Shown here: positions 18,242 through 64,000 of the stretch, piece after piece | Layout: the number at the start of each line of letters is the position of its first letter | Numbering within the stretch: the first letter of the stretch is position 1 | NCBI GenBank assembly: GCA_032622095.1 | Contig: CP136066.1 | Coordinates: 99,903,319-99,967,318 of the forward strand | Direction: 5' to 3' | DNA length: 64,000 bases | Source: Siphonodentalium dalli | Taxonomy: Eukaryota; Mollusca; Scaphopoda; Gadilida; Siphonodentaliidae | Translations under genes and position numbers: made by a program | The notes under the pieces: generated by a model | Database searches by the model: none | What the model was told of the DNA's origin: nothing | The model's input: only the letters and a program-made list of their open reading frames with translations

Positions 18242-18378
18242 ATTTATTCTTGGTGCTAGTAGCAGGCCATCTTTTTGGGCGCACTTATCTCCGAGGGTGA
18301 TGAAGTAGATGGCTTGAATGTTACGGTTTGCCTCTTTCAGTGCATCCTTATCTTCAATTATATATGTTAAATCTTGTG

Positions 18379-18954
18379 TCATACACCCGCAACAAAATCA
18401 TGGGGGTATACTGGAATTCGCTTGTCCATCCGTCCATGTACATATTTGTCCGGAGTTTTTCTCCATCATTTTAAATCATTTTCCGTGAAACTTGGCAGAC
18501 ATCAACTACCATGGGAACCTGCGCACCTGCCATTTTATGTCGGTCAGACTTATTTTCGCAGTTTTTGGCCTTCTAGACTTATTGTATCAGTAATATTTGT
18601 TTACCAATTATTTGCTGTGAAGATGATCTCTCATTTTAACTATATCCTAAGTTAACTAAGTATTTTACTGTTGATATCTAACCTACCACCAGATCATGTC
18701 TGTTGAATGCATGTCACCTATATTTCCATAACTGACTGACATGAAAAACCCTCTGACTACCATGTCATGTTATCCTTGCTACAATCTGGAATGCAGGTCC
18801 GTCCGTGGACAAGCTTTGTCCGGAGTTTTGCTCAGTCATTTCTGAATTGTGCACCTGCAATGGGAATCTGTTATTTTATTATTTTAACTTAATGCTTACT
18901 GACATGTAAAACATCTTGGTATCCTTAGTCCCATTGGGACAGTCAGACCTCTAG
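18379..18954 (+). mobile_element. Helitron-like element (family 2, copy h3)
   Basis: It begins TCATACACCCGCAAC at 18379, with GGGGGTATA pairing back. It ends with GTCCC-ATT-GGGAC, AGTCAGACCT and CTAG at 18951-18954 followed by T. The TC start, stem and CTAG end satisfy the classical Helitron rules. The 576-bp length and lack of coding make it non-autonomous. The orthologous copy h4 lies at 48358-48934. Confidence 0.7.
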
Positions 18955-19465
18955 TTATTTTTAATTCTTCCCACAACCTACCCACATTGATCGAATATGG
19001 CTCATTTACATTCTAATTTCCTCTAAAACCGTTTCAACTGATGCAACCACTTCAATTGCTCCTCCACTCAACACTTCGTCGCCAGTTGATTCTTCGTTCA
19101 TTGTTGCTGATGGGTTATGTGTTGCTGGGTGGCACATGTTATTCAGTTGGAACTAGGGCGAGCTTATGTATTCTGCTCCTGCAATGCGTGGAATGCCAGG
19201 TGTACCAGCCATCTCTGTATCCGCTGCCTGGACCAAAATACAAGATTCCTTAACACCGCCTTAATAAAATATTTTCATTTACAACATTGATATTACTTCC
19301 GTGTAACACACACAAATTACATGATATATCACGTGATCGATAGCTTGGATAACTTCGCAGCTGGAGACATCACAGCGTCTGCTTTCATATTGCTTGGACG
19401 TAACTTTCAACGACCTATGAAAATAACGTTGGGACTGGATGATAAATCTTCTTTAAGACAAGGAA

Positions 19466-19980
19466 TTGGTGTTGATTTTGTTGCATGTATTGTCTCAGCA
19501 AAATTACAGTGCTTCGCAAAGTATGGCAGTTATTGGTCACAAGTCCGTGTCATCCCTAGCGGTATATCAACGTGTATATCTGACGAAGGATGGAGATGGG
19601 CCGGCCAATAGCCGCCAAATTGATCCCAAATGGACCCCCGATCACAAGTTCTAATCATACAGTCAGTGTGAACCCAGATAATGAAATCGCTGGCGCAACG
19701 CTAAATGCAAACAACACATTGGGAAGTGGAATGAACCGATGTGTGAACGGATGGCGAAACGACAGCGAATACTGACAAATGTATGTTCATAATCCAGTAT
19801 TTCATCATAATACACATGCAATCCATTAATCTAATCATGACAATGGCACTAGACCAGAAAAGTGCATCAATGTCATCATCCAAAAACAAGTGCACTGGTA
19901 ACTTCAACATAGCAAGTTTCTTGAAAGAACTATTTGAGGAAGAGCTCACAATCCCGGCGAATGTATCATTGGACAAGTAA
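19466..19980 (+). pseudogene. Tyrosine-recombinase-like C-terminus, copy A (frameshifted)
   Basis: The frame around 19490-19575 reads QNYSASQSMAVIGHKSV then SSLAVYQRV. GHKS...Y matches the spacing of the last two catalytic boxes (H/GH and the nucleophilic tyrosine) of tyrosine recombinases such as Cryptons. The frame then shifts into MEMGRPIAAKLIPNGPP at about 19592, the kind of tail that follows the tyrosine in this group. A last block, 19783-19980, ends NIASFLKELFEEELTIP. The upstream catalytic arginine was not located. The breaks show it is inactive. Confidence 0.5.
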
Positions 19981-21034
19981 ACATAATTCTGAAAAACTTA
20001 CTCAGGAAAACATCGCCGTCACCGAAAGCAAGAATTCTATTGGATAGTGGACACTTTTGTCATTGAGTGTGTTATTAATAGAATTAAAATTCCTGTTGCT
20101 CAAATGCGCCCAATTCAACCACCCGTCTCGACGGGGCATGCTAGTAGTACAACGTAATCCGAATCGCACGCTTAAATCTTTACGCGAATGACGTCAACTA
20201 TCGCCCAACATACAAATTGGCTCGGAAAAATGATCACATTACGGTTGCTATGGAAATGATGGTAAATTGGGAAAAAAATCGTTATCTTCGGGAACATACC
20301 GAATGTATCTGAATGTCTTTTTGAACAGACATTCAAAATCTACATCCAAGTATTAAATCTCCATATACCCCCGATGTTGCAGAAGATAACTAATGAACAT
20401 AAAAATCGATATCCAAGTATTAAATCTCCAAACACCCCCGATGTTACTGAATATAACTAATGAACATAATCTCGCGCAAATACGCACATAATCGACATAT
20501 AATGTGAAATAGATACATAATGTGATTATTTGATTATAATGGATTCATACCCGTTATTTAGTTTTATGTCGCGGGCCAAAGTGAAAACTCATGTTAAAGA
20601 GCGAACACATGAAAAGTCTTGAGTTGGCTTACTTGTGTCATTGTCCGCACATAATCTGCTTATGATCGTCTCATTAGGAGTCGATAATGTGACTATAACG
20701 CTACAAGGTACAGTGCTTTCTGTTAGGAGATTATATAACTGATTAGTTTCTTATTGTCGTGTGAAATATATCAAAGACTATCATAATTGATCAACGAAAT
20801 GATACCCATCATGGTACACTAAATTAGTGGTTTCAAATGGTTCACAATATACTGGTATACATTCATTCTTTGAACTAATCCCATTCATGGACTATAAACT
20901 AGATATGCACGCACCCAATCTGCGTGGGTTTTATTTATCCTAAAAACCCCTACATCACGATACACTAAAGTAGTGGTTTCAAATATATAGATATGGACGC
21001 ACCCAATCTGCGCTGGGTTTCTTTCATTCTACTT

Positions 21035-21220
21035 TCAACCCGGAGTATGTCATGGATACAAGTTACGTCAAGACAGTTCTCGATACATCAGACAAGATTG
21101 ATTCACGTTCATTGCTCTTAGCAGGGGAGATTCAGATGCTGGCTGGTAAATACAATGGTGTTGCACAAGTGAACGCCAATCTGAAGGCCATATTCGCTAT
21201 GGTTTGCCACTGTTGAAAAC
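21035..21220 (+). pseudogene. Unrecognised reading frame conserved between repeat copies
   Basis: The frame STFNPEYVMDTSYVKTVLDT continues to LLLAGEIQMLAGKYNGVAQV and NANLKAIFAMV before a stop. The partner copy (62689-62895) keeps the same frame with only a few substitutions. No initiator Met in copy A and no known motif. It may be part of the repeat's coding capacity. Confidence 0.3.
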
Positions 21221-21842
21221 AATTAAATGACAATTTGGTCCAATGTGACCTTGTTTACGTTTCGACATTCGGCCCATATTTCTAGAATATTTCATCGACA
21301 TTCACGACAGGTGATCGATGTAGCGTGCCCACAATGTTGTGCAACTTTCAAGTAAATAAATGTACAGTTTTATTGAAACACATAAGAATGCCAGTTCCCA
21401 TAACTGAAAAGAGTTATTTTATTGAGAAATAGCTGTCATAGTGTTGTCGACAAGTTTGGTTTATTTGAGTAAAGCTCCGCCCATTACTCAGAAGCGGCAC
21501 CAATATATTTGTAAACGTACAACACGTGATCGTCGGTGTCAGACTGCCTTCAATCTGACATTTTTCTGTTTTTACCTTACACTGGGCTACATTATAGTTA
21601 TTGCAGCCATGTTGACCTCCAGTTATAACATATACAATATAATTTAACATATAACATCTGCTTTGTTCTGTTGAAAGCAATAATGACATGTAAACTGGAC
21701 CGATAAATACCAAAGAATATAATTTTGTTATTGAAAAATTAACTATTTATTTTTAGTGTCCCTCTCAATCATCGGATATGTATGAAATAAATGCATATCA
21801 TATTCAATATCGAACAAAATAACATATTTCTTGTAGCACGTG

Positions 21843-23971
21843 CAGGGGAGTGTGGGGGTGAAAAATAATTACACATATAGGGCCCAAACAGTTTTTTTCC
21901 GACCCCGAGGGACCCACCACCCCAAAAAATATTTTTTTCCTCCAAAATTTTGGGACCCACCCCTCCCCCTTTCTCATGTTTTTATCAAAATTTCAGAGGT
22001 ATTTTTTAGGCGTTCTTCAATAACTGTGTTCACTACCTTTCAATCCCATTCCACTATCCTTTTTTGGTGCAAACTCTTGCTGCGTACCATTAAGACTCAA
22101 GCAATAACATGCTTAATTGATAAACACATCAGAATAACGAAAAATAAACTGAATTTCCAGGTGTTTTCAGTATCTAACAACAATAATAAAGCATTGTGTA
22201 GGTACACTATATGTCACAAATCACCCTAGACCCCAGTATAGCCTAATTTATCGAGTGTGTTGTGTCTGATAGAGAACACTGGCCAGTGTAAATAATGGTA
22301 AACAGGTCAGGGGTTCCACAATTATTTGTGCATGACCAAAAAACTCTTTAGTCTTATACACCGGGTGGGGAGGTATTAGTCAGCGGGTATATAGTTGATG
22401 CCTCGAGCCGTCCGTCCGTATGAACATTTTGCATTATAACTCAAGAGTCTGTTGTTATATTTAGATGCCCTATGGCATCACTGTGCACAATTCATCAAGT
22501 TCAGTATGAAGACTGTCGATGTATCAAAACCAAGAGCTCCTTGCACTAACATGCCATACGCATGTCCAGCATGTGATGTCGTATAATGGACATATTTCGT
22601 TGAAACTCATTATCGGTTGAAACACCCGGGTTTCAGTTGTCCCGTGAAAGTTCTTGATTCCGAGAAAGACAGAATGGTCAAACACTAACCATCAGAATAT
22701 TTTTAATTCATAAAAACTGAATCTCCACTATATCAACTCATGATCAACATTGTCTACTTTGTAGGCCTGGCTTAATTGTATTTGGTTTTCCACAAAATTA
22801 GATATAATTTTATCTGTTGCATTGTATGCACCACCCTTATCATAATTCAGCAATAGCTTGGTCAGTATACTAGTTGCAGTGCAACTAGTACAGATCATTT
22901 AGATGACTTTATAACCATAATGCCAATTTTAACAATATTACATATATCTAGTGAAATCCATTGTGGCTCACAACGTGACTGCTTTTGACTAACCATATCA
23001 GTAAAGGCAAATAGAATGTGTCTTCCTAAATGTTATCAAATGTTCAAGAACTGTGGAGCTTCAGTGGCTATGGATTTTAAATATTTGTATGTACATTTAT
23101 GAACTAGAGTCTGCAGTATAGTCTGTCAGATTTTATTCTTGATTTTACTTTTAGTTTGAACTTTGAAGACATTGAAGAATGTCATTTCTCAATGTATCTG
23201 AATGCATCACATTATTTCAGTTCATCTATCTGTAAGTGATAATAGTATACAATTAGTATTTTAGTTTAGTCTTGTTGAGCAGTAAAGCACCAAGATGAAG
23301 TTCGGAAATTCAATGAGAATAGCGTCACCTTCAGTTTGGATTGTCTGAGCAGTAAACAGTAATGGTCATTAACCATAACCAGTTTAATTGGATAATTGTT
23401 GCAAATTAACATTACTTGCAATCATTCAAGATGAGAAATAACCAGAAGGAATGAATTTGATTACATGCCAGAACAAGACAGTATTTCAGACATTGTAAAT
23501 TTATGAGATACCCTTTTCAATTTCATGTTATGCAACAATCAGATTAATGATATCTAGTCATCATTGAGTATTCACCATGTAGTATCCAATTTGTGATACA
23601 GTTTTTTTGTTTTATTACTTTTATTCAGGTAATACAACTGGGTAATATATTAATTTTGTTACTAAATATTTCTTCCGTTGATCATAAGTTTCCTGAACAC
23701 AATTACGGTGGTCCACTGTGAAGTGGGCCGGGATCCTGTGAAATCCAGAATGTTGCTAAATCTTAAGCTAAAGAGTCACTATAGCTGCCTATATAGCTCT
23801 ATAGCAACAAGCATGGTACTAACATGATTACAAACAACATTACATGGTCAGTACTAGTAAATTGTTTGGAAAAAAAAACATTTTGGAAACAATTTACAAG
23901 CACGATTATTTCGGCCTCTGGACCACCCACCCCGACCCTATATACGGATTTTTTTTGCAGACCCCCCCTGA
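21843..23971. mobile_element. CAGGGG-ended element (~2.13 kb) inserted in copy A
   Basis: Copy B has an uninterrupted CACGTG at 63514-63519. In copy A CACGTG appears on both sides of this block (21837-21842 and 23972-23977). The ends are inverted: CAGGGGAGTGTGGG on the left and, read inward from the right, CAGGGGGGGTCTGC. CAGGG ends recall hAT elements, which make 8-bp duplications; only six matching bases are visible here, so the class is uncertain. No transposase frame is evident, and the interior is AT-rich with no gene seen. Confidence 0.7.
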
Positions 23972-24340
23972 CACGTGTTAGTTTTATACAATAGAATCTA
24001 AATAAAACATAAAATAGGGTTTTTTTAAACATTGGTTTGGAAGCCTGAATACATCTTTAGAACTAGAACAATTTATTTACACACATAAAATTAAAAATAG
24101 GACATTTTGAGATTGTTTTTTTAATAATTTCAATAAATCAATGTCAGGCGGAATGTGCCTGGACTAATAATCGTCCTCTTACTAACTGTCGTTACTAGCA
24201 TTAGATATACTAATGAATAAACTACAAGTATATACATTGTAGTAGATATTCACATTTAGATGTGAAGTGTTGAATATCAACTGACAGGTGAACACAATTT
24301 TCATGAGTACCGGTAATATATTAATATATATATATATTAA

Positions 24341-24834
24341 AGGTACGGTTGGCCTTGACGGTGGGTATCCTGTGAAAATATTTCCACCCGTCAAAAACCG
24401 ACACAAACAGAAAGAACAACAAAATGTAGACAGACTTTGTCCGTATACAAATAAGAAATATCGCATAAACAGTATGGTATTGTCATATCTTTGACCATTG
24501 TTATGTAAACAAAGCCATAAAAAGTTACTTTTCTGGTGTTTGTTTATATTATGATGGTAAACATAAAGAGCGTTCTTTGTTGGTGAATTCCTGATATGGA
24601 ACGAATAAAGAGCGTTTATGCAATTTGTGTGTGATTAGCCAGCAGCATTGTGTTGTCTTCTGTAACACAATCAGGCTCTTGCTTAGGTAAAATATAGTAA
24701 ATCTTTATGATAACATGCTGTTAACGCGATGGTCATGGTATATATGAACGAAACTGTATGCGTTTTAATGTTTTTCTGTTTACGGTGATTGGAACAAATA
24801 TGAATATTTTCGACAATTAAGGCCTCACGTGCCT
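24341..24834. mobile_element. TTAA-flanked MITE (494 bp) inserted in copy A
   Basis: TTAA occurs at 24337-24340 and 24835-24838; copy B has one TTAA at 63879-63882. The ends are inverted repeats of about 17 bases: AGGTACGGTTGGCCTT on the left and AGGCACGTGAGGCCTT read inward from the right. TTAA targets suggest piggyBac or Kolobok; no coding capacity. Confidence 0.8.
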
Positions 24835-24915
24835 TTAATCTTAAGGTTGACAAACATACATTTATTAGTTCCCATGCAAATATTTGGTATTCAAATGTTA
24901 TGTCAAAAATCAACC

Positions 24916-26660
24916 CAAATTAAATAGGGTGTACCAACGAATGGACTTATAAACAATAAACGTAAATCAAAGGTAGTCCAAACTAGACAGGTGCATGCCA
25001 GAAAAAAACTAAAAAACTTTAGTGTCAAACTTTTGGGTGTTGTTGATAGTTTAGACATATATGTTGAGAATAAAATCTCGGGCCACCCTGCAAAAGTCCC
25101 TGTATTGAAAATAAATAGCGAAGTTCAAATTCAAATATGTTTATTCTCATTAAACCATATATACAATACAGTATTTGAGAAAAAATAATAAAGTGAAATA
25201 CATGTAATGAAATATATATACATAATACCCGACGTGTTATAGGTATCTCGAGGTGTATGGTGATTTTTCGTCATTTGGCTGCATAACATTATCCTTATTA
25301 TACATTGAGAGAGACTGTAAAAGTGACACATCAAGCCATTCTGATCCTAATATGGGAGAAACTTTTGATATAATATATATATATATATGGTCATATATGT
25401 TTGACGTGCACAGGTCTGAGACAATCTCATCACATTTCCTCTTTAGTGTAATTAATGCATGGATCAGTTTTGACACAGAACTCTGTTGTATATAGGAATG
25501 TACACGTATGATTCAGGGGAGAAGCTCATATCGAACATGTTGACAACACCTGGATGTTTGAATTGACCCATTAGTCGAGATTCCACAAAACTTATTGTTA
25601 ATGCTTAGTTCTAGAAATTAGATCTTCCAAGAATACAATATATATTGTTGTGTAGTTTATATACATATATATATAATTCATAAGTATGTGATTAATGTCG
25701 ATCGGGTACTTTGTGATACAAATAAGGCGAACGGGTCTATTGTGTCACTTTAACTGGTCAATCATCCTTTCACAACTGGATGGTCTCGCCGAGCGAGCAT
25801 CCAGTCATCAAAGGTTTACGTGATTGATAACGGATAACTATATTATACAGCCTATCGGGATGACACCACTCACCGAGACACACAATCACATCAGGCTGGG
25901 CGGGGGCATATGCAGGCAATCTATCGCTCTCATCGCATCGATGATTCAGACAGCTATAAACGCACGATTTAGTCGAATTTTCACGGGGTTATTTCGGTCG
26001 GTGTGTGATCTCTCGGGGCCGGGTCTTTCGGTTTTCGGTAATCGTCGATTGCAGTCTGTGCTGAAAGCCGATGGACACGCTTGGTTATTGGTGAGTGAGT
26101 GAATTTTAAAAGTATAAATCTTTAAACCAATAACGTATACGACTTTATTTTGGATACTCTTATCACCATGGACTGTTGTATATATACTGTCTCTGGGAAT
26201 TGTATTATATAATGATGTCTTTATGGTTACTGTATTATAAGCTTGGTTCCCGGAGAGATCACAATATTAAATGCACATGTATACATGGACCATTTTTTTC
26301 AATGTAGCCGTATACAATCGAGGCAGTGATTAAAGTGACACGACATGGTATTATGTAAAATTAAATCATAGTCTTCGGTTCAAGTTCAAGTGTATATTGT
26401 CTCATATAATCTTCAAAAAGGAATCACGTCAGCTATATGCCACTTTAACATTCTACCTGCCTTACTTACACCGATTTATGCGGTGCGAGTTCACCACTAC
26501 CTGCAGGTTTGCACCGATGGTGCGGGTACATCTCTGTAAACTCACGCGGACCGTCCGATGGTCCATTTCCCACATTGGGCACTCAGTATATTTGTGGGGT
26601 TGGGGGGGGGGGGGTGTATGGGTCTCATTTGGTGACTAATCAAATAAAGGAATGTCGATA
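24916..26660. other. Non-coding; one GC-richer island
   Basis: Mostly AT-rich without gene signals. A GC-richer stretch at about 25780-26100 holds a 92-codon open frame ending beside GTGAGTGAGTGA, which could be an exon or first exon, but nothing in the peptide is recognisable. A long G-run lies at about 26596-26615. Confidence 0.35.
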
Positions 26661-26663
26661 TAC

Positions 26664-26682
26664 ATCTATACTATACTATACT
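26664..26682 (-). repeat. 3' microsatellite tail of the LINE
   Basis: The plus strand reads CTATACTATACTATACTG, so the element's 3' end is (TATAG)n and directly overlaps the ORF stop. Very short 3' ends with a simple repeat are usual in several non-LTR clades. Confidence 0.75.
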
Positions 26683-28893
26683 GCTGGTCATTATTTTTTC
26701 ATTTATTAATTTTATGAAACGATAGACATTGTGCAGCACCTGAGATTTATTGTTTTTCATAAGTGAGATGAGTTTATCGTCATTTGGGTGTGTATAATAG
26801 TATCGCGGAATAAATTTAACCCTGGTATCGTTGAGACTCTCACATATCAGTAGTGTGTGGTATTCGCTTCCAATAGACTTTCCACATAACGTGCACGTGT
26901 TACTGGTGGGAAAGTTTTTCCAACTTGACGTTTCAATTGCCAATCGATGATTTCGCGTGCGGAATCGCAACAACGATAATGCTTCGTTTGTTGGGAGCTT
27001 TAGAAGGTAAATTTCTTCTTCAAATTCGTTTTTGATCATTCTATAGAATTGGTATTTGTCAGAGGAATTAATTATGGTTTGCCATTCCTGTATATATTCA
27101 TCTCTTAGCTTCACTTTGATTGTCTGACGAAACCAGTTTTCCCTTATAATATTATGGGACAACCAGATATGCGACAATCCGATATAATTGAGTGTAGTTT
27201 GTATATAGCGGATCCAACCGAGACCAGTTTTGTGTCGGTTTATCATGTTGTGTATAGTGGCATACAAGATATAAGATATTTTAGTTTGATTTCCGCTCAC
27301 TAGTCGTGACCAATAGTTTAATATTCTACTTTTAATTTTACTCGTTATCGGTAGTAAGCCTGTTTCTCCATAAATCATCGCCGTCGGTGTTGATTTTTTA
27401 AGTTTTAATACAAATTTGAGGAACCATAATTCAGTGCGCTTAATTATTTCATTGTTGGCCACTCCCCACACTTCACAGCCGTATGTCAATATTGGTATAA
27501 CCGTTTTTTCATAGAGTTCGATAATACACGTCAAAGGGAGCTTCCATTTTCTAGCTTTGGAAATAATAGAAAACATAGCATGTTTGGCTTCATCACATCT
27601 CCTTTTCTTTTCGGCTACAAAAGAACCATTATTTGAAAAGATCACACCTAGATATCTATATTCTTTTTTTACTTCAATTGGTTGATCATTAATTGTGAAA
27701 TTGATTTTGGAATTTCTATCGTGACCGAATATCACAATATTGCTTTTGCTGTTATTTATTGTCAGCTTCCATTTTTCACAGTAAGCGGCATATGCATTTA
27801 ACATATTTTGCAATTCCTTTGGGCTATCAGCCAGTAGGACGGTGTCGTCGGCATACAACAGGCACATTATTTTGATATGTTCATGAAATGTGGTTTCATT
27901 TAGGTCAGCTAACGCAATACCCTTCTGGTCCATGTCATATAAATATGTTTCAAGGTCATTGAGGTAGATCGAGAACAGTATTGGTGATAGGTTCTCTCCT
28001 TGCCTTACACCCATTTCACATGAGAAGGAAGGAGAGCACCTACCCCCAAGAGATACACACGATTTTATTCCATTATACATGTTCATTATTAGGTGGAGGA
28101 CCCGTCCTTTAATTCCTATTTCTAAAAGTTTTCTCCATAGTCCAACTCTCCAGACGCTATCAAAGGCTTTAGACAGGTCGATAAAAGCACAATATAAACT
28201 CATTTTTTTCTTAATTTTTGTCATTTCAATTAGGCTATGTAATGAGAAAATATGATCTACTGTTGAGTAATCTTTTCTGAACCCAGCTTGGTTTTCTGAT
28301 AATAATTCGTTTATTTGTAGGAATGTATATATACGATTACTTAGGATTGCTGTAAATAATTTCGCCACACAGCTAACTAGTGTAATGGGTCTGTAGTTGT
28401 CAGGATTTTTAGGATCTTTGGATTTAAAAATTGGGTGGATAACGCCTATTCCCCATTCATCAGGTATGAAGCCAGTTCGCAAAATCAGATTGAATAGTCG
28501 AAAGTACAGTGGTTTCATCTGTTCGAAAGTAGCTTTTATATATTCACATCGTATATTATCAACTCCCGGTGATTTTCCAAGTTTCAGATTCCTCACCACA
28601 TCCTCAATTTCCGTTAAAGTAAAATCAACGTCGAGTGAAGATGTTTCAAACTCATGCTTAAAATCGTCCCCGGTATCGGAGGTGCATACATTCTTTTCTT
28701 TGAAATATTCATAGAACTCTGTTAAAGATGGGGTTGTTTCAGTTAGTTTACTATTTTTATTTTGGTTGAGCAATTTCCAATATTCCCTGGGGTTATCAGA
28801 TTTCATTTTTCTTAATTTTGCATTAAAATCAACATCGTATTTTCGTTTGCCAAGTCGCAGTGCATGTTTATATTTATTCCTAGCATCTACCAT
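26671..28893 (-). CDS. Non-LTR retrotransposon reverse transcriptase (5'-truncated)
   Basis: The 740-residue product carries the ordered RT motifs: NYRPI near residue 166, AFIDLSKAFDSV near 236 (catalytic Asp), GVRQGENLSP near 295 and LLYADD near 345 (catalytic Asp pair). YLGVIF follows near 409. A C-terminal zinc-binding-like motif CTLCGKS...EYHTLLIC lies near 665-685. It copies element RNA at a nicked target. The frame is fully open from Met, but no endonuclease domain precedes it and an in-frame stop occurs 15 codons upstream of that Met, so it is probably a 5'-truncated or frameshifted copy. The stop codon lies in the (TATAG)n 3' tail (plus strand about 26664-26682). Jockey/I-like superfamily; clade not assigned. 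Confidence 0.92.
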   Translation of the reverse strand: MVDARNKYKHALRLGKRKYDVDFNAKLRKMKSDNPREYWKLLNQNKNSKLTETTPSLTEFYEYFKEKNVCTSDTGDDFKHEFETSSLDVDFTLTEIEDVVRNLKLGKSPGVDNIRCEYIKATFEQMKPLYFRLFNLILRTGFIPDEWGIGVIHPIFKSKDPKNPDNYRPITLVSCVAKLFTAILSNRIYTFLQINELLSENQAGFRKDYSTVDHIFSLHSLIEMTKIKKKMSLYCAFIDLSKAFDSVWRVGLWRKLLEIGIKGRVLHLIMNMYNGIKSCVSLGGRCSPSFSCEMGVRQGENLSPILFSIYLNDLETYLYDMDQKGIALADLNETTFHEHIKIMCLLYADDTVLLADSPKELQNMLNAYAAYCEKWKLTINNSKSNIVIFGHDRNSKINFTINDQPIEVKKEYRYLGVIFSNNGSFVAEKKRRCDEAKHAMFSIISKARKWKLPLTCIIELYEKTVIPILTYGCEVWGVANNEIIKRTELWFLKFVLKLKKSTPTAMIYGETGLLPITSKIKSRILNYWSRLVSGNQTKISYILYATIHNMINRHKTGLGWIRYIQTTLNYIGLSHIWLSHNIIRENWFRQTIKVKLRDEYIQEWQTIINSSDKYQFYRMIKNEFEEEIYLLKLPTNEALSLLRFRTRNHRLAIETSSWKNFPTSNTCTLCGKSIGSEYHTLLICESLNDTRVKFIPRYYYTHPNDDKLISLMKNNKSQVLHNVYRFIKLINEKIMTSSIV

Positions 28894-28959
28894 TTCTCGC
28901 TGTAGTTTTGCGGTTTGGTGTTCAAATGTTCATAATTTCCAATCACTCGACGCACCATA

Positions 28960-29625
28960 CTCCATTTTGTTAGAAGGGATATAACTCTAAAGCAAACATT
29001 AACTCGATTTCGTCTGACCAATTGCAGATGCGATTATGTAATCAATTAATATTAAGTGAATATTAATCATCAAATGGACAGTTTGAACAAAATATTAAGA
29101 AACGGTAATTTTAATGAACATTCCATGAACACAGCGACCCACAGTAAAGAGCAGAACCCTGATTGTTTAAAACATTTATGACCTTGGTTTTACGGCAACA
29201 GTGACAACACTGTTTTGTGTTTACAAATTTACACAAAATTGCACGATTCTAGCGATCTAACTGTAATAAACGTACAGTTGCGCGTGCTGCTGCGCGGATG
29301 GACACATAATTTAAATAATTGTGACGAAACGATATCGATTGCCATAATTATTTTCATTGACTTCGGCGCGATTCATTTTTTAAAGTTTCGGAAATTACAG
29401 GATATTTCAGTCAAAATTGTGTTTATTCTGACCAAAAAAGCATGACACTTGGAACGGAATGTTGTCAAGATTCTGTTGGTATGTGTAAATAGTGTTGGTT
29501 CATACAGGAAATGTTTGGAAATCGTTCTAAAAGTAGAAAACTTAATTTCGAAGTGACGATATATTTTTATTGTCGTAAACAAACACTTGGAGAGGAACAC
29601 GTGGAAGTTCAGCTCGGATCTGGAA
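28960..29625. other. Gap between LINE and recombinase, no gene seen
   Basis: Only short frames are present, with no motif recognised. The LINE similarity ends near 28960-28980 and the recombinase frame begins at 29626. Confidence 0.45.
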
Positions 29626-38430: not shown

Positions 38431-38439
38431 TATAGGCTC

Positions 38440-52151: not shown

Positions 52152-52465
52152 GATTGATTGATTGATTGATTGGGGTTTATTGTCGCTTTAGCAACTAAGG
52201 CCATATCACGACATTGCCAGTTTTAGTGGTGGAGGAAATCCGCACACTTGCGACTAATCTAACAGTGATTTCAATGGCTGATAAACTCGTCAACCATGCG
52301 CCGCAAACCACCGGCCATCGGCGAGTAACTGGTAACTCCACCAGATAACGATTTCGAGCTACAAAGTCCACGACGGAAACATGAGGATTTGAACCCTTAT
52401 CGCCAGCGCTGGAGGGCGAAACGGCTTGGAGTTGTACCCCTAACCGATTGAGCCACCGAGGCCCC
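52152..52465 (-). mobile_element. tRNA-derived SINE with target-site duplication
   Basis: On the minus strand the head reads GGGGCCTCGG, with box A TGGCTCAATCGG (52455-52444) and box B GGTTCAAATCC (52395-52385) of an RNA polymerase III promoter. A central domain follows and the 3' tail is (CAAT)n, seen on the plus strand as (GATT)n at 52152-52171. An 11-bp duplication GGATGCTCCAG flanks it at 52141-52151 and 52466-52476. Intact boxes and a perfect duplication imply a fairly recent insertion mobilised by a partner LINE. Confidence 0.9.
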
Positions 52466-52476
52466 GGATGCTCCAG

Positions 52477-54028: not shown

Positions 54029-54523
54029 TCATAAAATGTTGGTACATGTGTAAGAAACAAGTATATTATAACGGTATATTTTGAAGGGGGTTACATGTTT
54101 GTCCGAAAATGTAGCCTCAAGAGTTCCGAAATATATCAATGACCTTTTTTTTATAAAAACTGAGAGATTCTTGGTAATTCTTCTGTTGTGGTTATTGAAT
54201 AGTGCTGCTAACTTGTTAGCGTTTGGTCTCCGATAATAGTATGGTCCCAGGTATTGTACGCGTATGTCTTGGGGTTCAATACATTTAAGGATTACATGAT
54301 ACTCGTCGCATATTTCTGAGTTGCAGAGGGCACATAATCTATCCGAATATGGGGCACTGGTCCACGTGCCATATTCTATTGAGAGTCTATGGTTCCTCGT
54401 TCGGAAAAGAAGGATGCTTTGCATGACTCTGTGGTTTGTTATTGATAGGTAACTTTCTCGTTCAAATGAGGTCTTGATAATACGATAAGATGCGAATTTA
54501 CTGGATGTTGCTATCGATGACAA
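54029..54523 (-). pseudogene. Non-LTR retrotransposon fragment (ORF C-terminus)
   Basis: The 164-residue frame reads LLFRTRNHRLSIEYGTW, then CALCNSEICDEYHVILKC, then YYYRRPNANKLAALF. These align with the same region of the LINE at 26671-28893 (LRFRTRNHRLAIETSSW, CTLCGKS...EYHTLLIC, YYYTHPNDDKL). It is 5'-truncated at about 54525, keeps the zinc-binding Cys/His set, and lacks the RT core. Confidence 0.9.
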
Positions 54524-54818
54524 CTAATTGTGCTTGGCATGCTCATCGATACTCATTCTCATGATAGCATTATGTATTCAAGCAAGTGTACTAGTCATCA
54601 TAATTATAAACCTGTGGATATATATACATAATCATAATATTTAATGAACATTGAAGTCACTTCCGACATATATATTAGCTTACCACTAAATCCGTTTTAT
54701 GTTAATGTTCTAATTGGACGCTAGGCCATTGGAAATGCATACATGGATGCTCATGCAGTTCCATATTCGTCAAATGTGTTAGCGTTCATGAATAACTCGT
54801 TCGGACGTTAGAACGATC

Positions 54819-55670
54819 AACCAATTAGTTTGTAAAAGTGGTCAATATTAGCCAGTTTCTTTGCTAAAGACGTAAGCCTACATCCTTCTCGAAATTTGAA
54901 TGCCATTGTGCGAAAATTTCACCGTTTAATCTTCTAGTCTATTCCAGACAAAGCAATTTTCCAAGTAGATTTGGAGAGCTTCTATGAGTACAATGGCCTT
55001 TCCTATAGAACGTTAATGTCAATAGAACGTTGTTTGATAAACCAACGGCTAATTATGGACCCCTCTACAATTCTGATCTCTCATGATAATCCAGCGACAA
55101 AAAGGGCACCAGTCTCATAAGAGACATATACAACATCACAAAACAACAGGTATGTATTGGACAGTAAACGCCCTTTGTGCTTGTCGTGTTTAGTAACTCA
55201 TTCAACGTTCTTTTTAAATATTTTAGAGTTTGCGAGTTGTTAGTCTTGGATCTGATGTTAGAATAATGAACCAATTAGTGTGTAAAAGTGGTCAATATCA
55301 GCCAGTTTCTTTGCAAAAGACATAAAGGTTACATCCTTCTAGAAAATTTAATTGTCATTGTGTTTCGCAAATTTAACGGTTTATTGTTCTAGTTTATTCT
55401 AAGCAAAGTCATTATCAAGGTAGACCTGGAGAGCTTCGATAGGCATTATGGTATTTCCCATAGAAATTTAATTTCAATAGAACGTTGTTTGATAAACTAA
55501 AGGCTAATTTTGGACCACTCTCCAAATCTGACCTTTCACGATAATCGAGCCATAACAAAAGGCCACCAACCTCATATGAGCGATATACAACATCACAGCA
55601 CAACAGGTGTGTCTTGGAGGTAGTAAGCGCCCTTTGTGTTTGTCGTGTCGAGTTATTCATTCAAAGTTTT
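54819..55670. repeat. 450-bp tandem duplication
   Basis: 54819-55219 recurs at 55269-55670 with roughly 80-85% identity (AACCAATTAG, AAAGTGGTCAATAT, TAGAACGTTGTTTGATAAAC and GCCCTTTGTGNTTGTCGTGT in both). A related stretch occurs in the opposite orientation at 59975-60100, so the unit is also dispersed. Confidence 0.8.
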
Positions 55671-57497
55671 TCAATTAAACATTAAAAGTTCTCTTCCTGC
55701 TGGATCGGTAAAAAGCGACATTAGCCAGTCAATATAGGTGATCGTGAATATGTGGCAGTGAGGCTCAAATTGCCTCTACTCCTATCGTTAAGGCTACATA
55801 CACATACAGACAATACGTTTACAACTTAAAGTCTGAAAGTAACGGTATGACATGTTCAGACTAAAACCGGACCATTGTCATGTGCACATAAATTATAAGT
55901 ACTTGTAATAGCGTGTGTACCCCTCCCTTCTCACACCCCTGAATCGAACGGAAATTTGATGGAAACAATTTGATGGCGACAAAATGTTTCACCAAATGTT
56001 TGGTTGGTATCCGTGGTGCATGTCATATATATATATATATACCAGCCAGATAAACATGTATCACTTAACATGGCCTATGAATAAACCCACTTGTATGACA
56101 TGTTATAATCGATATATATACAATCAAATACATACAACTGAGCAGTATTTGTTACGTGCTTCATTTTGTACGTATGCATATAAATTGTATACTAGCAGTT
56201 ATTATGTATATATGCAAAATTATTATGTTGGGTTTTATGTTTGAACATATAGGCCGGAGTCATCATCTCCAGTTTAAACATCCGAGTTAAACCTGGTTTT
56301 AGACCTACATTGGTGGTCAAAGGGCGCATCTTGTCGTTCAGTTGTCATTTAGTTGATAACTCTATTCGATGGTATGAACATGCAGTCAAACTACCTTGTT
56401 ACCAATCAGAACAATGTGCAGGCCGATAAAACGCTTATTGACACGCCATAAATTATCGCGAGCGATATGTATTCATTGAGAAACAAGTATCGCTCATGGA
56501 CCACTAATCCATTCTTATTCTGCGTTTAAACAAATCTGCCAAAGGGCATGTCTCTCGACGCGAGTTTCACCACTTTGTTTGTGGTTTTCCGCAAGATGCT
56601 TTACCCGAAAAGACAAAAGTTGGTGTGTTTACATGTATGTTTATATAGACATAGTATGAGATCTGTCTATCTATCCGTCCGTCCGTTCGCAATTTGTCGT
56701 CCTAACCCCAGAACCGCTGTTGTGGGTTAAGTAACTAGATAGAACAAGTTGTAACGAGCACATTTGTTTATTGTTTTGTGTCTACTGATCGCCGCCAAAA
56801 GAGTAGCCGTTAACGTGTCACTTGCAACACTTAGGAAACAGCCGTCCACACCATAGTATCGAACGTGTTTTTATTTTTGAAAACAATGAAAACTGGTTCA
56901 GCCAGTTACAGAGGTGTGTTGACGATTTAAATGCAGACGGGGAACCACAGTGCAGTTATATTTGTCGTTAACTTCCTGTTGATCTCTCCAAGACAAAATC
57001 CATACATGGGAATGACATGACCACCATCCGATTTTAAATGTGTGGAATCGAATAACTTTATTCTCAATACTTGGATGCCATATGAGTTTGTTATTTTGTG
57101 CATAATATTAGATAATCCTTTAATCAAAAACAATCATTTTTAGAACTGGAATTGCAAACAAATATCTTCGATCTGAATTGGGTGGGGGTGGCGAATAACT
57201 GTATTCTTCAAACTTGGGGTGGCGAATAACATTGGTCTTTAAACTCCGACGTAGATACGTTTCTAACTTTTTGTATTTGATTAGACGATCCTTCATTCAT
57301 AAACAATCATTTCATAGAACTGGAAGTCGAATTGAGAATAAAAATCTGCGATCTGAAATTATGTATTGGTTGGTGGGTTGGCGGGGTGGTGAATAACTTT
57401 ATTCTTAATACTTGGATATCAGATAAGTTTCTTATGCTGTACATTACATTAGTCGATTGACAATAGAGCCCAATTATTTAGCACAACCCATCCTGAT
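55671..57497. other. Non-coding, no gene seen
   Basis: AT-rich with small TA runs (about 56027-56041). Two related 'GAATAACTTTATTCTNAATACTTGGAT' blocks occur near 57050 (first inverted-like partner) and 57388. No exon recognised. Confidence 0.4.
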
Positions 57498-57574
57498 GTT
57501 GAAAATGAACATGCCATGCTGCTACTAAGAAAAGTATACAAGGAACCAGTTTTTGAACAGTTGCCCCCACACTA

Positions 57575-57997
57575 GTGAAATCTATTTCATTCCTTGTATT
57601 GTCTTTAAGGTGTTTGATGAATGTTAATTAACCATAGAGTTAGAGATAGAACAAAATTTATTAAGGTTAACGAGCCATACAGCTCTAACGGCAAAATGAA
57701 CAATGACCGTTTTCAACTATATCGGGTCTTGCGTACAATGTTATAAATCTATATTTTATCTGACAACCATAGACGTCACGTGACATTAAACCACATTAAA
57801 TCACACCAACATCATAGTGAAATCTATTTCATTCCTTGTATTGTCTTTAAGGTGTTTGATGAATGTCAATTAACCATAGAGTTAGAACAAAATTGATGAA
57901 GGTTAACTAGCCATACAGCTATAACGGCAAAATGAACAATGACCGTTTTCAACTATATCGGGTCTTGCGTACAATGTTATAAATCTATATTTTGTCT
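57575..57997. repeat. 242-bp tandem duplication
   Basis: GTGAAATCTATTTCATTCC starts both units (57575 and 57817). Both contain AGGTGTTTGATGAATGT, TAACGGCAAAATGAACAATG and TCTTGCGTACAATGTTATAA. Outside them, 57498-57574 is repeated at 58234-58321 (TATACAAGGAACCAGTTTTT). Confidence 0.85.
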
Positions 57998-58419
57998 GAG
58001 TTAAACAACCCACAATGTTAACTCCAACCTTCCTGAGCACATCTGCTGTTTCGACTGAACCAGTAAACAATAAAGGCAAGTGAACCGGATGATTTGGGGA
58101 TATATGGCGGCTATTTGGGGTAGATTTGGTCAAAAACATGCACAAAAATCCTCGAAAATATCCTGATTTTTGCTTAAGATGGCAGCCATCTTGGATTTGG
58201 AGATCACGTGACATTAAAACATTGGAATAGAGTGCAATTTCGATGTTGAAAATATGCATGCCATGCTTCTACTAAAAAGTATACAAGGAACCAGTTTTTG
58301 AACAGTTGCCCCAACCCTAGTAAATGTCCCGTAGTAATATGGAAATCATTATTAATTTTGTTTAACCCCAACGGTTTCGTGATCATTTTACCTTAATAAA
58401 AATATGATATATGTATCGC

Positions 58420-59111
58420 GCATGGACCTCAACATTGCACTTTTTGTTGCTAAATCGGCTGCGTGGTCAGCACCATGGCAGTCACAAGGGACTGAATTCT
58501 CGTGCGGTGCCGCACAGCGGGCATCTATATAGGACAGGGAGGCAACCATATAACCCGTTCCATATTTTCGAAAATAGGGCTGAAGTCGTGCATGGAGTGT
58601 CAAAATAGCCCCTTTTGATACTAAATCGGCTGCGTGGCCAGATCCATGGCGGCCACCCGGGAATTCTTGCATTTTCGTGCGGTGCCACCCAGCGGGCATC
58701 TATAGGACAGGGACGTGACTATATAGCCCCTTCAAAATATTCGAAAATTGGTCTGAAGTCGTGCATGGAGACCAAATAGCACGTTTTGTTACTAAATCGG
58801 CTGCGTAGCCAGAACCATGGCGGCCACCCTGGAATCCTGGCATTGCCGTGCGGTGCCACCGAGCGGGCATCTTATATATGACAGGGGCACGACCATATAT
58901 ATACACGGAAGGATTCCCTTGTGACTGCAATGGTTCTGGCCACGCAGCCGATTTAGCAACAAAAATTGCAATGTTGAGCTCCGTGCACAACTTCAGCCCA
59001 ATTATCGAACATTTGGAAGGGGTTATATGGTTGCGTCCCTGTCCCGTTGACGCCCACCGAGTGGCACCGCATGCAAATGCAAGGATTCCCGGGAGGCCGC
59101 CATGCTTCTAG
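58420..59111. mobile_element. Foldback element with 171-bp units in both orientations
   Basis: Three direct units are marked by TAAATCGGCTGCG at 58451, 58622 and 58793 (period 171). An inverted unit follows at 58916-59111. The outer arm 58420-58490 is the reverse complement of 58916-58986 (CTCAACATTGCA, TTGTTGCTAAATCGGC, AGTCACAAGGG). Apparent frames on both strands derive from this structure. Confidence 0.75.
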
Positions 59112-60754
59112 CTACGTAATCATGTTTATGGGCTGCGAAACGGTTTTCAAAAACATTTCTTTGTTTTTTTGTGACATCTCCCAGTCTGTTGTTGAAAATA
59201 CGTAAGAGTTTTAGGTCCTGATGGATCTGGGTTTTCTCTATCCATATTGTCGATTTAATTGTTTAAATACCAGAGGAGCAGATGGTGGCGATTTTCTGCT
59301 ATGTCTATATAGTGGTATAAACGATACGACGTCACGATATCGGGAAGAGAAGTCCCAGAACCCAAGATACTGGCAGGTATACCACGATGAGATCAGTGAA
59401 ACCCACTTGAAATCCTAAACGCTCTGTATAGTCACACCGACTATCGACCCATTGGCCAAAGCCGGGACTATAGCCTATAGTACATGTATGAGGTGGCGCG
59501 GCTTTTCCAAATTAATTGTCAACACACCTCATCCCACACGGACAACATCTTCATGTATACGGTATTTTTATTTGTTTATATCTGCATTAAGTATACACTA
59601 ATACTATAAAACAAGTTGATTATACGGTGACAGTCTTGATTTCTTGTTTACACTCAGACAGGATGTCATCCGGAAAACTAGCAATTTATTTGTGCCTAAT
59701 ATTCAGCCAACTTAAGTCGGACAACGATTCCAACATTTATAACCAAAATATGCAATATATGTATATAGTCATTCTCCAAGACAATGCCAATTTGTATTGT
59801 AATAATCAATCGGATAGGAATTTCATGAAAGCATTGTCATTCTGTGTACGTAGCATCAATTATAAGACTGGAGCTATATTTCAGCCTTTTCTATACATGC
59901 CCAGCGATACCTATATCGATTGGCATGTGTCCCTCGTCAAAGTTTCAACAGGAAGGGGATCCGGATGTTGAAATGTAAACCGTTGAAAGAAGCACTCAAT
60001 GTGATAACTACAAAAGGCTTTTACCACCCAAGGCGCACCTGTTATTCTGGAAATCCATATATTAATCTTATGAGACTGGTGGCAGCGAACAGAATTGGAG
60101 AGGTGATTAAAAATAACTCTATAGATACTGACACACAATGTTCTGTTGAAATGAATCTCCTAATTGAAAATACCGCTAGGTTTATCGACGCTCCGTGGGT
60201 CTACTTGGATAGATCTTGAAACTTATGATGCAGAATAGCTTTTACCTCCCTATAACTCAATTGGAAATTAATTGATTAATCTTGGCATATATCACAAAGA
60301 AATGGGTTCATCGTCCAAACCATGACTAAAACGCACACTGCCAAACATATTTAATATAAAACATTTTTGACATAGCATCATACATCCTGGGACCCAACTT
60401 TAGCCCGAGCCTGTGTACATATTCCGTCATTTTCTAGTCATTTTTTTTTTAATTTGGCACAGATATTAAACATCGTTGGAACCTGCAATTCTGAGTTTGG
60501 TTGGACACATTTTTGTCGAGTTCTTGTCATTTTTGCCGACTTTTCTAGCTCGTTAGCGCAATAACTTGAACAAATATTAACCGATTTTAACAATGTTTTG
60601 CGTAAGAGCTATTTAAAAAAAATTCGAAAACCAGACTTATCCGATCTTTTCTACCGCAATTATGGCCCCTAGTTTGACGAATTTTCTTGATTTTCAACAT
60701 TTGAGGTTTCCGGATGATGACATTTATTCCGGACATATCCAATCCTTCAGTTAG
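59112..60754. other. Non-coding and repeat-derived
   Basis: Open frames at 59627-59971 and 59920-60219 overlap a dispersed repeat: the segment encoding ITTKGFYHPRRTC and NLMRLV has nucleotide-level relatives on the minus strand at about 55080-55200 and 55530-55650. 60400-60750 carries diverged family-3 units (TTTCCGGATGATGAC, TTATGGCCCC). Confidence 0.5.
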
Positions 60755-60796
60755 CCACCGTCTCCAGGGACATTGTGGTCGGTCGACCTTTTATTT
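60755..60796 (+). repeat. Family 3 Helentron-like 3' end
   Basis: AGGGACATTGTGGTCGGTCGACC then TTTTATTT, the same end signature (GGGACA, stem GGTCGGTCGACC, T-rich end) as at 39396-39432 and, more loosely, 44500-44527. Confidence 0.5.
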
Positions 60797-61042
60797 AATA
60801 TGATTTGGTGTATCATTTCTAGATGAAGACAATCCAACTCGACCACCCATCGGACACTTGAATTATTCTAAACCACACAACTATCGGCATTGCCGCGCCG
60901 TATATATCAGTACCCGATTCCTAGATTATATCCACACTACTTTCCCACCCATCGGAAACATGAATTATCAAAAAAATGCTCTTCATTGTTCGGTCCACAA
61001 AATTTTAGGAGACAACGATACGATTAGGTGCCATTAACTTAG

Positions 61043-61400
61043 GCTGAATAGGTCACTCTCACCGGTTTTCTGTGATAAAGTTACCCAGGTTCCTAATTTT
61101 GTGATAAAGTTACCCAGGTTGGTGAGAATTGTGATAAAGTTACCCAGGTTAAGCAAATCTCACAATATCAACTCGATTTAAAAGTGACAGAGGGGAATAT
61201 TGTTCAGTTTTGGCAAGTAATAGCCCTTATCAAGCATAAATTAAGACATATCACAAAAATCAATAATTTGTTGCTAAACATGAACTATTATTAACCTGGG
61301 TAACTTTATCACATTCTTCTCCAACCTGGGTAACTTTATCACAATTTCAGGAACCTGGGTAACTTTGTCACAGAAAACCGATGAGAGTGACCTATTCAGC
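61043..61400. mobile_element. MITE with iterated 21-bp motif and 9-bp target duplication
   Basis: TTAACTTAG flanks it at 61034-61042 and 61401-61409. Ends are GCTGAATAGGTCACTCTCA and its inverse. In each arm a 21-base motif (core GATAAAGTTACCCAGG) occurs three times, pointing inward, spaced about 27-30 bases. Arms are about 110 bases. A 9-bp duplication fits Mutator-like elements (inference); the iterated motif may be multiple transposase-binding sites. No coding capacity. Confidence 0.85.
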
Positions 61401-61409
61401 TTAACTTAG

Positions 61410-62179
61410 CAGGTATAATTCCATGCGCATTAAGATTCGTCGACTAAGATTGTTACAAGTAACACCACCAGGGAGATACAGCTGCACCTATGTAGCCTCT
61501 GATGTCTACATATATAGAGTACGGTACATGCAGTTTGCATTGGTGTGTGGCACCGTGGTACGGTATATATCATCTCATTCAAAACCAGCTAAATAATCTT
61601 TTAATTCTTATTTTTTTTTAAACACAGATTCACCCATATTAGCATTGCACTGTATCAACCCAATTCATTGTGCTGTAATGCCGTTGAAGGTTTTTTGTGA
61701 GTTTGTCAGTAGCTTCATATCTGCCCTTACACAAGTTCCATGAATTCCGTTACTAGTTCCCAGACCAACCCCAGTTTCTAGTTCCCAGTTCTCATAATAT
61801 GATAACAATCGTTACTGAATCGCCCACATGTATGTATGCGTAATCACAGCAGCTACGGTGTCATCCTTTCTGGATTCTTCTTGTGCCGCGACTAGTCCAT
61901 GAGGAATCTAATGGTGTGGTTTATAGACGTCAATAGTGGCGCCATTTGAGTCAGGGATGCATTGAAGGGGAGAGGTGCACAATAATTAATTAACCTGTTT
62001 AGCGCCGATTTCCACAAAGTTGATACACATTCTTCTCTATGAAACGAGGAATCTAATCGTGTGCTTTCAAGATGGCAAAAGTGGCGCTATTTGAGTCAGG
62101 GGTGCAGTGCAGGGAGAGGGATACCAAAATCGCACTTCCGCAAAAAGCCAATTTGGCATTTTTGGCGGATATGTTTTTC
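61410..62179. other. Non-coding, no gene seen
   Basis: AT-rich sequence between the MITE and the right end of the 11.7-kb insertion. Only the short tandem at about 61905-62110 is repetitive. Confidence 0.45.
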
Positions 62180-62329
62180 GGTGGTTACCATGGCAACCAT
62201 GGGCTTTCTCTAGCATGGCATGATATCCAAATCCACAAGATATCACCTCAGGATATTGTATACAAAGTTTGTTGCTTTTACCTTAAAATGCACGATTCAC
62301 CCTTTTTTTGACACGGAGCCGCCCTACTA
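62180..62329 (-). repeat. Right terminal inverted repeat of the 11.7-kb insertion
   Basis: Read on the minus strand it starts TAGTAGGGCGGCTCC, then AATCGTGCATTTTAAGG, TATCATGCCATGC and CATGGTTGCCATGG. Just inside, two ~140-bp units (GTGGCGCNATTTGAGTCAGG at about 61937 and 62081) form a short tandem. Confidence 0.75.
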
Positions 62330-62688
62330 TTATGGTCGCCTCATTATGAGTCGGTAATGTGACTAAACCGCTACAAGACACAGTGTTTTATGTTAGGAGA
62401 TTATATCACTGATTAGTTTCTTAGTGTCGTGTGAGATATATCAAAGACTACCAGAATTGATCAACGAAATGATACGCATCATGGTACACTAAATTAGTGG
62501 TTTCAAATGGTTCACAATATACTGGTATACATTCATTCTTTGTTTTGAACTAATCCCTTTCATGGATTATAAACTATATATATACACGCACCCAATCTGC
62601 GTGGGTTTTTTCATCCTACTAACAACCCCGACATCACGATACACTAATTTAGTGGTTTCAAATATATAGATATGCACGCACCCAATCT

Positions 62689-62895
62689 GTGCTGGGTTTC
62701 TTTTATTCTACTTTCAACCGGGAGTATGTCATGGATACAAGTTACGTCAAGACAGTTCTCGACACATCAGACAAGATTGATTCAAGTTCATTGCTCTTAG
62801 CAGGGGAGATTCAGATGCTGGCTGGTAAATACAATGGCGTTGCACAAGTGAGCGCCAATTTGAAGGCCATATTCGCTATGGTTTGCCCCTGTTGA
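62689..62895 (+). pseudogene. Unrecognised reading frame, copy B counterpart
   Basis: Matches 21035-21220 of copy A with the frame maintained: SYVKTVLDTSDKIDSSSLLL, then AGEIQMLAGKYNGVAQVSAN. Here an upstream Met at 62689 is in frame. No motif recognised. Conservation of the frame is weak evidence because the two copies are similar throughout. Confidence 0.3.
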
Positions 62896-64000
62896 AAACA
62901 ATTAAATGACAATTTGGTCCAATGTGACCTTGTTTACGTTTCTACTTTCGGCCCATATTCCTAGAATATTTAATCGACATTCACGACAGGTGATCGATGT
63001 AGCGTGCCCACAATGTTGTGCAACTTTCAAGTAAATAACAGTAGTTTCATTGAAACACATAAGAATGCGAGTTCACATAACTGAAAAGAGTTATTTTATT
63101 GAGAAATAGCTGTCATAGTGTTGTCGACCAGTTTGGTTTATTTGAGTAAAGCTCCGCCCATTACTCAGAAGCGGCACCAATATATTTGTAAACGTACAAC
63201 ACGTGATCGTCGGTGTCAGACTGCCTTCAATCTGACATTTTTCTGTTTTTACCTTACACTGGGCTACATTATAGTTATTGCAGCCATGTTGACCTCCAGT
63301 TATAACATATACAATATAATTTAACATATAACATCTGCTTTGTTCTGTTGAAAGCAATAATGACATGTAAACTGGACCGATAAATACCAAAGAATATAAT
63401 TTTGTTATTGAAAAATTAACTATTTATTTTTAGTGTCCCTCTCAATCATCGGAAATATATGAAATAAATGCATAGCAAATTCAATATCGAACAAAATAGC
63501 ATCTTTCTTGTACCACGTGTTAGTTTTATACAATAGAATCTAATTAAAACATAACATGGGTTTTTTAAGCATTGGTTTGGAAGCCTGAATACATCTTTAG
63601 AACAATTTATTGACACATTTAAAATTAAAAATGACATTTTTAGATTTTGTTTTATTATTATTAATTTCAATAAATCAATGTCAGGCGGAATGTGCCTCAA
63701 CTAATAATCTTCCTCTCACTACCTGTCGTTACTAGCATTAGATATACTAATGAATAAACTACAATATACACATTGTAGTAGATATTTGCGCATTATCCAC
63801 ATTTAAAAGTGAAGAGTTGAATATCAACTCACAGGTGAAAACAATTTCATGAGTACCGGTAATATATTAATATATATATTAATCTTAAGGTTGACTAACA
63901 TATACATTTATTAGTTCCCATGCACTAAACAGTCAGTAAAAATATGACTGAAAGATTTGATATTCAAATGCTATGTCAAAAAGCAATCCAAATTAAATAG

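What the first reader, a model, noticed from the sequence alone, without database searches (positions are those of the whole stretch)
18242..64000. Two copies of a ~4-kb repeat act as mutual empty-site controls
18242-24915 and 48240-64000 are the same unit. Comparing them gives the exact edges of an 11,697-bp insertion in B and of 2.13-kb and 494-bp insertions in A, each with its duplicated target. It also shows that a Helitron-like element was inserted before the copies separated. One window thus dates four insertions relative to each other.
Basis: seen in the sequence. Interest (0 to 1): 0.75.

Follow-up and report, generated by a model that had tools for sequence, protein, structure and literature searches.

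The report
Duplicated segment recording transposon insertions
A stretch of chromosome was copied close to itself long ago, and because different jumping genes later landed in each copy, the two copies show where each one landed; this is a neat but ordinary piece of genome history.

Summary
A (from 18242) and B (from 48238) are homologous, and each copy is an empty site for the other's insertions. The 11,697-bp insertion in B duplicated TTA (3 bp). In A, the 2,128-bp insertion has a 7-bp duplication with one mismatch, and the 494-bp one has TTAA. A Helitron-like element (18376-18954) is shared, so it predates the copying.
The interpretation needs correcting. The unit is not a ~4-kb dispersed repeat and does not end at 24915/64000, where the window stops. 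Homology runs colinearly to 40351/80760. Each of three backbone probes found only these two full-length matches among the scored candidates of a 2.23-Gb genome. The "left boundary" is a breakpoint: older paralogous loci run across 18242, whereas B begins inside another repeat. A keeps the old arrangement; B is the derived copy of a local segmental duplication.
The 11.7-kb insert belongs to a young family of large TIR elements in which I found no transposase. A/B divergence rises from 4.2% to 9.4% near the 2.13-kb insertion, possibly through gene conversion. B's right end is unresolved. Each part is of a known kind.

The parts
18242..40351 (+). Copy A of the segmental duplication (shared backbone plus A-only insertions)
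   Evidence: colinear chain of blastn blocks to 48238-80760
48238..64000 (+). The part of copy B inside the window; it continues to window coordinate 80760 in L001/L002
18242..18242 (.). Point in A that corresponds to B's left breakpoint; older paralogs run across it
   Evidence: L070 aligns to 18069-18375 without a break; L071 to 17396-18253, only 12 bases past the point
47117..48237 (+). Dispersed repeat broken off at B's left breakpoint; 7 of 7 fetched copies continue past the junction
50633..62329 (+). 11,697-bp TIR element in B only, TSD TTA at 50630-50632 and 62330-62332; empty site in A at 20660-20662
21843..23970 (+). 2,128-bp TIR element (CAGGGG...CCCCTG) in A only, 7-bp TSD with one mismatch (21836-21842 and 23971-23977)
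24341..24834 (+). 494-bp MITE in A only, TTAA TSD (24337-24340 and 24835-24838), 5'-AG...CT-3' ends
18376..18954 (+). Helitron-like element shared by A and B (B: 48355-48934), absent at the same place in two older paralogs
24984..33693 (.). 8.7-kb stretch in A only; ends resemble imperfect TIRs by eye; holds a younger nested repeat from about 25.1 kb, an RVT_1 match and a sub-threshold DUF3504 match
35627..36961 (+). 1.3-kb A-only stretch with a reverse transcriptase match and a TATC-rich tail, read as a LINE fragment
19488..20394 (+). Older dispersed repeat shared by both copies (about 71-87% to other genome copies)

Best explanation
A chromosome segment (backbone 18242-40351) was duplicated locally. 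The derived copy B was joined at its left end to the interior of an unrelated dispersed repeat, at or near a short ATTTAT stretch present in both parents, most likely by a repair- or replication-based joining (inferred). A keeps the older arrangement (shown by paralogous loci). After the duplication each copy took its own transposon insertions: an 11.7-kb TIR element and others in B; a 2.1-kb TIR element, a 494-bp TTAA MITE and others in A. Each of these three duplicated its target, while the sister copy kept a single target (shown). A Helitron-like element and other old repeats were already present (shown). The left 3.6 kb may later have been homogenised by gene conversion (weak inference). 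The 11.7-kb element was probably moved in trans by a transposase that I did not find (inferred).
For: Colinear homology to 40351/80760. Two full-length genome matches for each of three backbone probes. L070 crosses 18242 without a break and L071 crosses it by 12 bases. B's left flank is a repeat truncated at the junction, while 7 of 7 fetched copies continue. Duplicated target in the filled copy and single target in the empty copy for each of the three inserts. 10 of 10 fetched copies of the 11.7-kb family have exact 3-bp duplications, at 9 distinct sites; three copies are about 96-99.9% identical to the window copy over the main aligned blocks. The Helitron-like element is missing from L070 and L071.
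Against: B's right end is not resolved. It meets another dispersed repeat (about 80754-81728), and neither A's 40352-48237 nor the other half of the left-flank repeat was found convincingly out to window coordinate 144000 (short repeat matches only, the best being a colinear 326-bp, 82% match of 45552-45862 to 122234-122551 that I could not test). The kind of duplication (tandem with later loss, or insertional) is therefore open. Microhomology at the left junction is weak: one base strictly, about six only if a 3-base gap is allowed in the repeat (by eye). Divergence is uneven along the unit.
Confidence: 0.85

Rival explanations
1. The unit is itself a dispersed mobile or repeat family with a fixed left end.
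For: Sharp left edge in two copies.
Against: Among the 40 scored candidates (of 2998) only two places match 18242-18942 in full; every other listed match starts at query base 140 or later. Two further probes also give two full-length places each. Paralogs run through the edge, and B's flank is a truncated repeat.
Confidence: 0.04
2. A and B are two haplotypes of one locus, placed side by side by the assembler.
For: Adjacent, same orientation, many presence/absence differences; a highly heterozygous species could show this.
Against: No N in the 124 kb of contiguous sequence. K2P of 0.04-0.165 per block is high for alleles. The left flanks of A and B are unrelated (best E 0.01), and B starts inside a truncated repeat.
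Confidence: 0.1
3. The empty copy lost the element by precise excision instead of never having had it.
For: Cut-and-paste elements can excise (general knowledge).
Against: The empty sites show a single target without footprint for the 11.7-kb, 2.1-kb and 494-bp elements; three independent clean excisions would be needed.
Confidence: 0.04
4. The left-right divergence step reflects regional mutation rate or alignment quality rather than gene conversion.
For: Right-hand blocks are short, gappy and repeat-rich; the rise after 21.8 kb is partly gradual.
Against: The change point (21770) lies next to the 2.13-kb insertion and 0 of 2000 bin permutations reach it; CpG-type changes are few (19 over the 13 blocks).
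Confidence: 0.5

Closest known systems
RESites (Related to Empty Sites) used to document transposon mobility (PMC2213677, passages seen)
   Same: Paralogous flanks lacking the element give the edges and the target duplication.
   Different: Here one duplication supplies empty sites in both directions, and older paralogs add an outgroup for one insertion.
Local segmental duplication (general knowledge, recalled)
   Same: Two nearby copies in direct orientation, one edge fused to unrelated sequence.
   Different: Right edge not resolved here.
Kolobok MITEs (TTAA, 5'-RR...YY-3' ends; PMC9587614, passages seen)
   Same: 494-bp element: TTAA on both sides in 8 of 8 copies and AG...CT ends.
   Different: No transposase partner was looked for.
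PIF/Harbinger (PHIS) elements (PMC4482050, passages seen)
   Same: The 11.7-kb element makes a 3-bp, AT-rich target duplication.
   Different: Only 5 of 10 distinct targets fit TWA; no DDE domain found.
Helitron/Helentron elements (features recalled)
   Same: A short stem then CTAG at the 3' end, no target duplication seen.
   Different: No 5' TC at the mapped edge, T-tract insertion, no helicase looked for; the stem folds no better than shuffles.

Membership tests
Segmental duplication | Long colinear homology beyond any one repeat, low copy number | tested here: met
   18242-40351 vs 48238-80760; two full-length matches for each of three probes
Segmental duplication | Both breakpoints defined | tested here: inconclusive
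   left defined; right meets another repeat
PIF/Harbinger (11.7-kb element) | TWA target duplication | tested here: not met
   3 bp in the window copy and 10 of 10 others, but 5 of 10 distinct targets are TWA
PIF/Harbinger (11.7-kb element) | DDE transposase | tested here: not met
   no transposase domain in six frames of the window copy at E<=0.05; this does not exclude a non-autonomous member
Kolobok (494-bp MITE) | TTAA duplication and RR...YY ends | tested here: met
   8 of 8 copies
Kolobok (494-bp MITE) | Shares ends with an element that encodes a Kolobok transposase | not tested
   no search made
Helitron (18376-18954) | 3' CTRR with a hairpin just upstream, no target duplication | tested here: inconclusive
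   CTAG end, GTCCC...GGGAC stem and an empty site without duplication, but the stem folds no better than shuffles (z -0.51)
Helitron (18376-18954) | 5' TC at the mapped start | tested here: not met
   insertion lies in a T tract, element starts near GTGTCATAC; Helentron-type insertion at T/T is possible (recalled)
piggyBac (B insert 64307-67995) | DDE_Tnp_1_7 transposase domain | tested here: met
   Pfam PF13843, E 1.6e-47 and 7.2e-09 in two frames; minus frames not scanned
piggyBac (B insert 64307-67995) | TTAA on both sides | tested here: inconclusive
   TTAA at left, TTAT at right
hAT/Dada-like (2.13-kb element) | Transposase of that superfamily | not tested
   only ends and duplications examined; its frames were not scanned

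The most novel reading that the evidence does not exclude
The 11.7-kb family is a recently active, large TIR transposon that carries no coding sequence of its own, has 3-bp target duplications that do not follow the TWA rule and about 150-bp imperfect inverted ends, and is moved in trans by an unidentified and possibly undescribed transposase. In addition, a gene-conversion tract between the duplicate copies stopped at the 2.13-kb insertion, which would place that insertion before the conversion and the 11.7-kb insertion after it.
Probability: 0.15. Interest if true: 0.5.

Novelty: new member of a known kind. Interest (0 to 1): 0.3.

Why it matters
The region gives self-contained evidence for transposon edges and target duplications in a repeat-rich genome without a second genome. 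It also exposes a multi-copy family of unusually large TIR elements without detectable genes. What mobilises it, and whether duplicate copies exchange sequence up to transposon-made heterologies, are testable questions. It changes no known rule.

Tried and rejected
Rejected: a dispersed ~4-kb repeat with a fixed left end. Rejected: B's left edge as the true end of the neighbouring repeat, because 7 of 7 fetched copies continue past it. Tried without success: finding A's 40352-48237, or the other half of the broken repeat, to the right of B up to window coordinate 144000.

Tried without success: finding a transposase in longer copies of the 11.7-kb family. Six other copies were fetched in pieces and four were looked at for extra blocks. 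Pfam was run only on L054 1-7014 and L057 7286-8790, both strands: L054 gave two GIY-YIG matches, L057 gave nothing. L053, L054 and L055 were read as ORF lists, and one extra block of L032 as ORFs. L056 and the other extra blocks were not examined for proteins. The Penelope-like and LINE-like readings are mine, from ORFs. Extra blocks of L057 remain unidentified.

Not scanned for protein families: 37917-48237, the 2.13-kb element except its edges, and most of the flanks. In the left backbone 18242-21842 no family was found. The organism was not identified. Paper searches: (listings seen); passages seen in PMC10045372, PMC9587614, PMC4482050 and PMC2213677. I make no claim that anything is absent from print.
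Full report
What was checked. The window is G000:C6:99903319-99967318 of a 2.23-Gb genome in 9 contigs. No call names the organism. The last block stops at base 64000, which is the end of the window.

Extent. Neighbouring sequence was fetched. Homology continues colinearly: 33694-33946 vs 64054-64306, 34348-35626 vs 68995-70275, 37092-37916 vs 70685-71588, and on to 40087-40351 vs 80495-80760. The chain's last two rows (40741-40799 and 43219-43344) are short and weak, and I left them out as repeat matches. There is no N in the 124 kb. So the "unit" is part of a segmental duplication, not a 4-kb repeat.

Copy number. Three backbone probes were searched genome-wide: 18242-18942, 34348-35626 and 18943-20663. 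In each, the only full-length matches listed are the two copies here; other matches cover internal, older repeats. Each search scored 40 candidates (of 2998, 359 and 3914), so weaker full-length copies cannot be excluded.

Left edge. The A side is not an edge. A probe of 17000-18300 found C6:62.8 Mb and C2:204.4 Mb. When fetched, L070 aligns to 18069-18375 without a break at 18242, while L071 aligns to 17396-18253, that is only 12 bases past it, and then in pieces further on. On the B side the sequence up to 48237 is a dispersed repeat starting at about 47117, and 7 of 7 copies fetched continue beyond the point where B begins. The sequence at the junction (ATTTATT) also occurs in A and, three bases displaced, in the repeat; strictly the overlap is one base (by eye). 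Hence A is the older arrangement and B was newly joined. The edge lies in or near a decayed minus-strand gene with a sub-threshold PHD match (E 3.9e-4, 20.8 bits, cut-off 24); paralog L070 has sub-threshold SWIM and PHD matches.

Right edge. B meets a multi-copy repeat at about 80754-81728, and beyond it nothing significant matches A. A's 40352-48237 and the missing half of the left-flank repeat were not found out to window coordinate 144000, apart from short repeat matches (up to 172 bp) and one 326-bp, 82% match in order and orientation (45552-45862 vs 122234-122551). Whether the duplication was tandem or insertional remains open.

(i) B, 50633-62329, 11,697 bp, TTA on both sides; A has TTA once at 20660-20662. 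The ends are imperfect inverted repeats of about 150 bp. Ten further copies were fetched by their ends: 10 of 10 show exact 3-bp duplications at 9 distinct sites, two copies sharing flanks. The ten distinct duplications, window copy included, are TTA, ATA, TAA, TAT, ATA, TAA, TCA, CTA, TTA and TAA; 5 of 10 fit TWA. The exact 31-base left end occurs 63 times and an exact 24-base right end 109 times, with 0 for the reversed controls. Pairing the 63 left ends with the 100 right ends that were listed (9 were not) gave 32 pairs, 26 of them 11.0-15.2 kb long; the other 31 left ends stayed unpaired. Of three copies compared piecewise, two are about 98.5-99.9% and one about 96-99% identical over the main blocks. 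In six frames of the window copy Pfam gave one sub-threshold MRP-S23 match (E 0.039) and nothing else. Longer copies carry additional blocks: L054 holds GIY-YIG matches and ORFs that I read as Penelope-like, L055 holds a 1271-aa ORF that I read as LINE-like, and the extra block of L057 gave no match.

(ii) A, 21843-23970, ends CAGGGG...CCCCTG. Of seven relatives examined, 5 show exact 7-bp duplications (3 distinct targets, since three copies share one); a sixth, L050, has lost its first bases and shows GTATGAC on both sides by eye; the seventh, L048, has no readable right end. The window copy's pair is GCACGTG/ACACGTG, with CCACGTG in B. Relatives match in pieces, mostly at 80-94%.

(iii) A, 24341-24834, 494 bp. 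TTAA lies on both sides in 8 of 8 copies near the locus. Seven of these copies are 94-98% identical to one another.

(iv) The Helitron-like element 18376-18954 (B 48355-48934) ends in CTAG after a short stem, in a T tract. L070 and L071 lack it at that place (by eye). The stem folds no better than shuffles (z -0.51; 49 of 200 shuffles as good), and no helicase was sought. That it preceded the duplication is supported; the name Helitron is only partly supported.

Smaller differences were not pursued.

Relative dates. Shown: Helitron-like element, then duplication, then the A-only and B-only insertions. Such identity bounds an age and does not measure it.

Divergence. K2P per block runs from 0.040 to 0.165, lower on the left. 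A single change point falls at about 21770, with 4.2% to the left and 9.4% to the right; 0 of 2000 permutations of 50-base bins reach it. The rise after it is partly gradual, and the right blocks are gappy. Gene conversion of the left 3.6 kb, ending near the 2.13-kb insertion, is possible but not shown.

Judgement. The correction is that the unit is a segmental duplication, with two copies as far as searched and a breakpoint at its left edge. The large TIR family is, as far as tested, a new member of a known kind.

Noticed in passing
L053-L057 and places: The 11.7-kb TIR family has many copies of 11-15 kb; some longer copies carry nested Penelope-like or LINE-like sequence near element position 11267.
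   Followed up: partly
L009/L010 (C7) and L013/L014 (C2): Two copies of the 11.7-kb element on different chromosomes have the same flanks and target, so the insertion was itself copied with its surroundings or sits in another repeated sequence.
   Followed up: no
G000:C6:18525387-18553373: Four right ends of the 11.7-kb family lie 9-10 kb apart in the same orientation, suggesting a tandem array.
   Followed up: no
window coordinates -8583 to 98022: Eight copies of the 494-bp TTAA MITE lie within about 107 kb.
   Followed up: partly
L070 4000-9701; window 15500-19200 minus strand: Old gene family with sub-threshold SWIM and PHD matches; the window copy looks decayed.
   Followed up: partly
15563-15589, 39656-39682, 16022-16048 (minus): Three more copies of the Helitron-like 3' end (stem then CTAG) in the window.
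   Followed up: no
24984-33693: Large A-only stretch with inverted-repeat-like ends, holding an RVT_1 match and a sub-threshold DUF3504 match on the minus strand.
   Followed up: partly
shared backbone blocks: Transversions outnumber transitions between A and B in 11 of 13 blocks.
   Followed up: no
L054 1572-2156 and 6070-6654: Near-identical 194-aa ORFs repeated on both sides of a Penelope-like ORF.
   Followed up: no
L041/L042, L045/L046, L051/L052: Three copies of the 2.13-kb family on two chromosomes share the same 7-bp target ATCTTCT and similar flanks, another sign of insertions copied with their surroundings.
   Followed up: no
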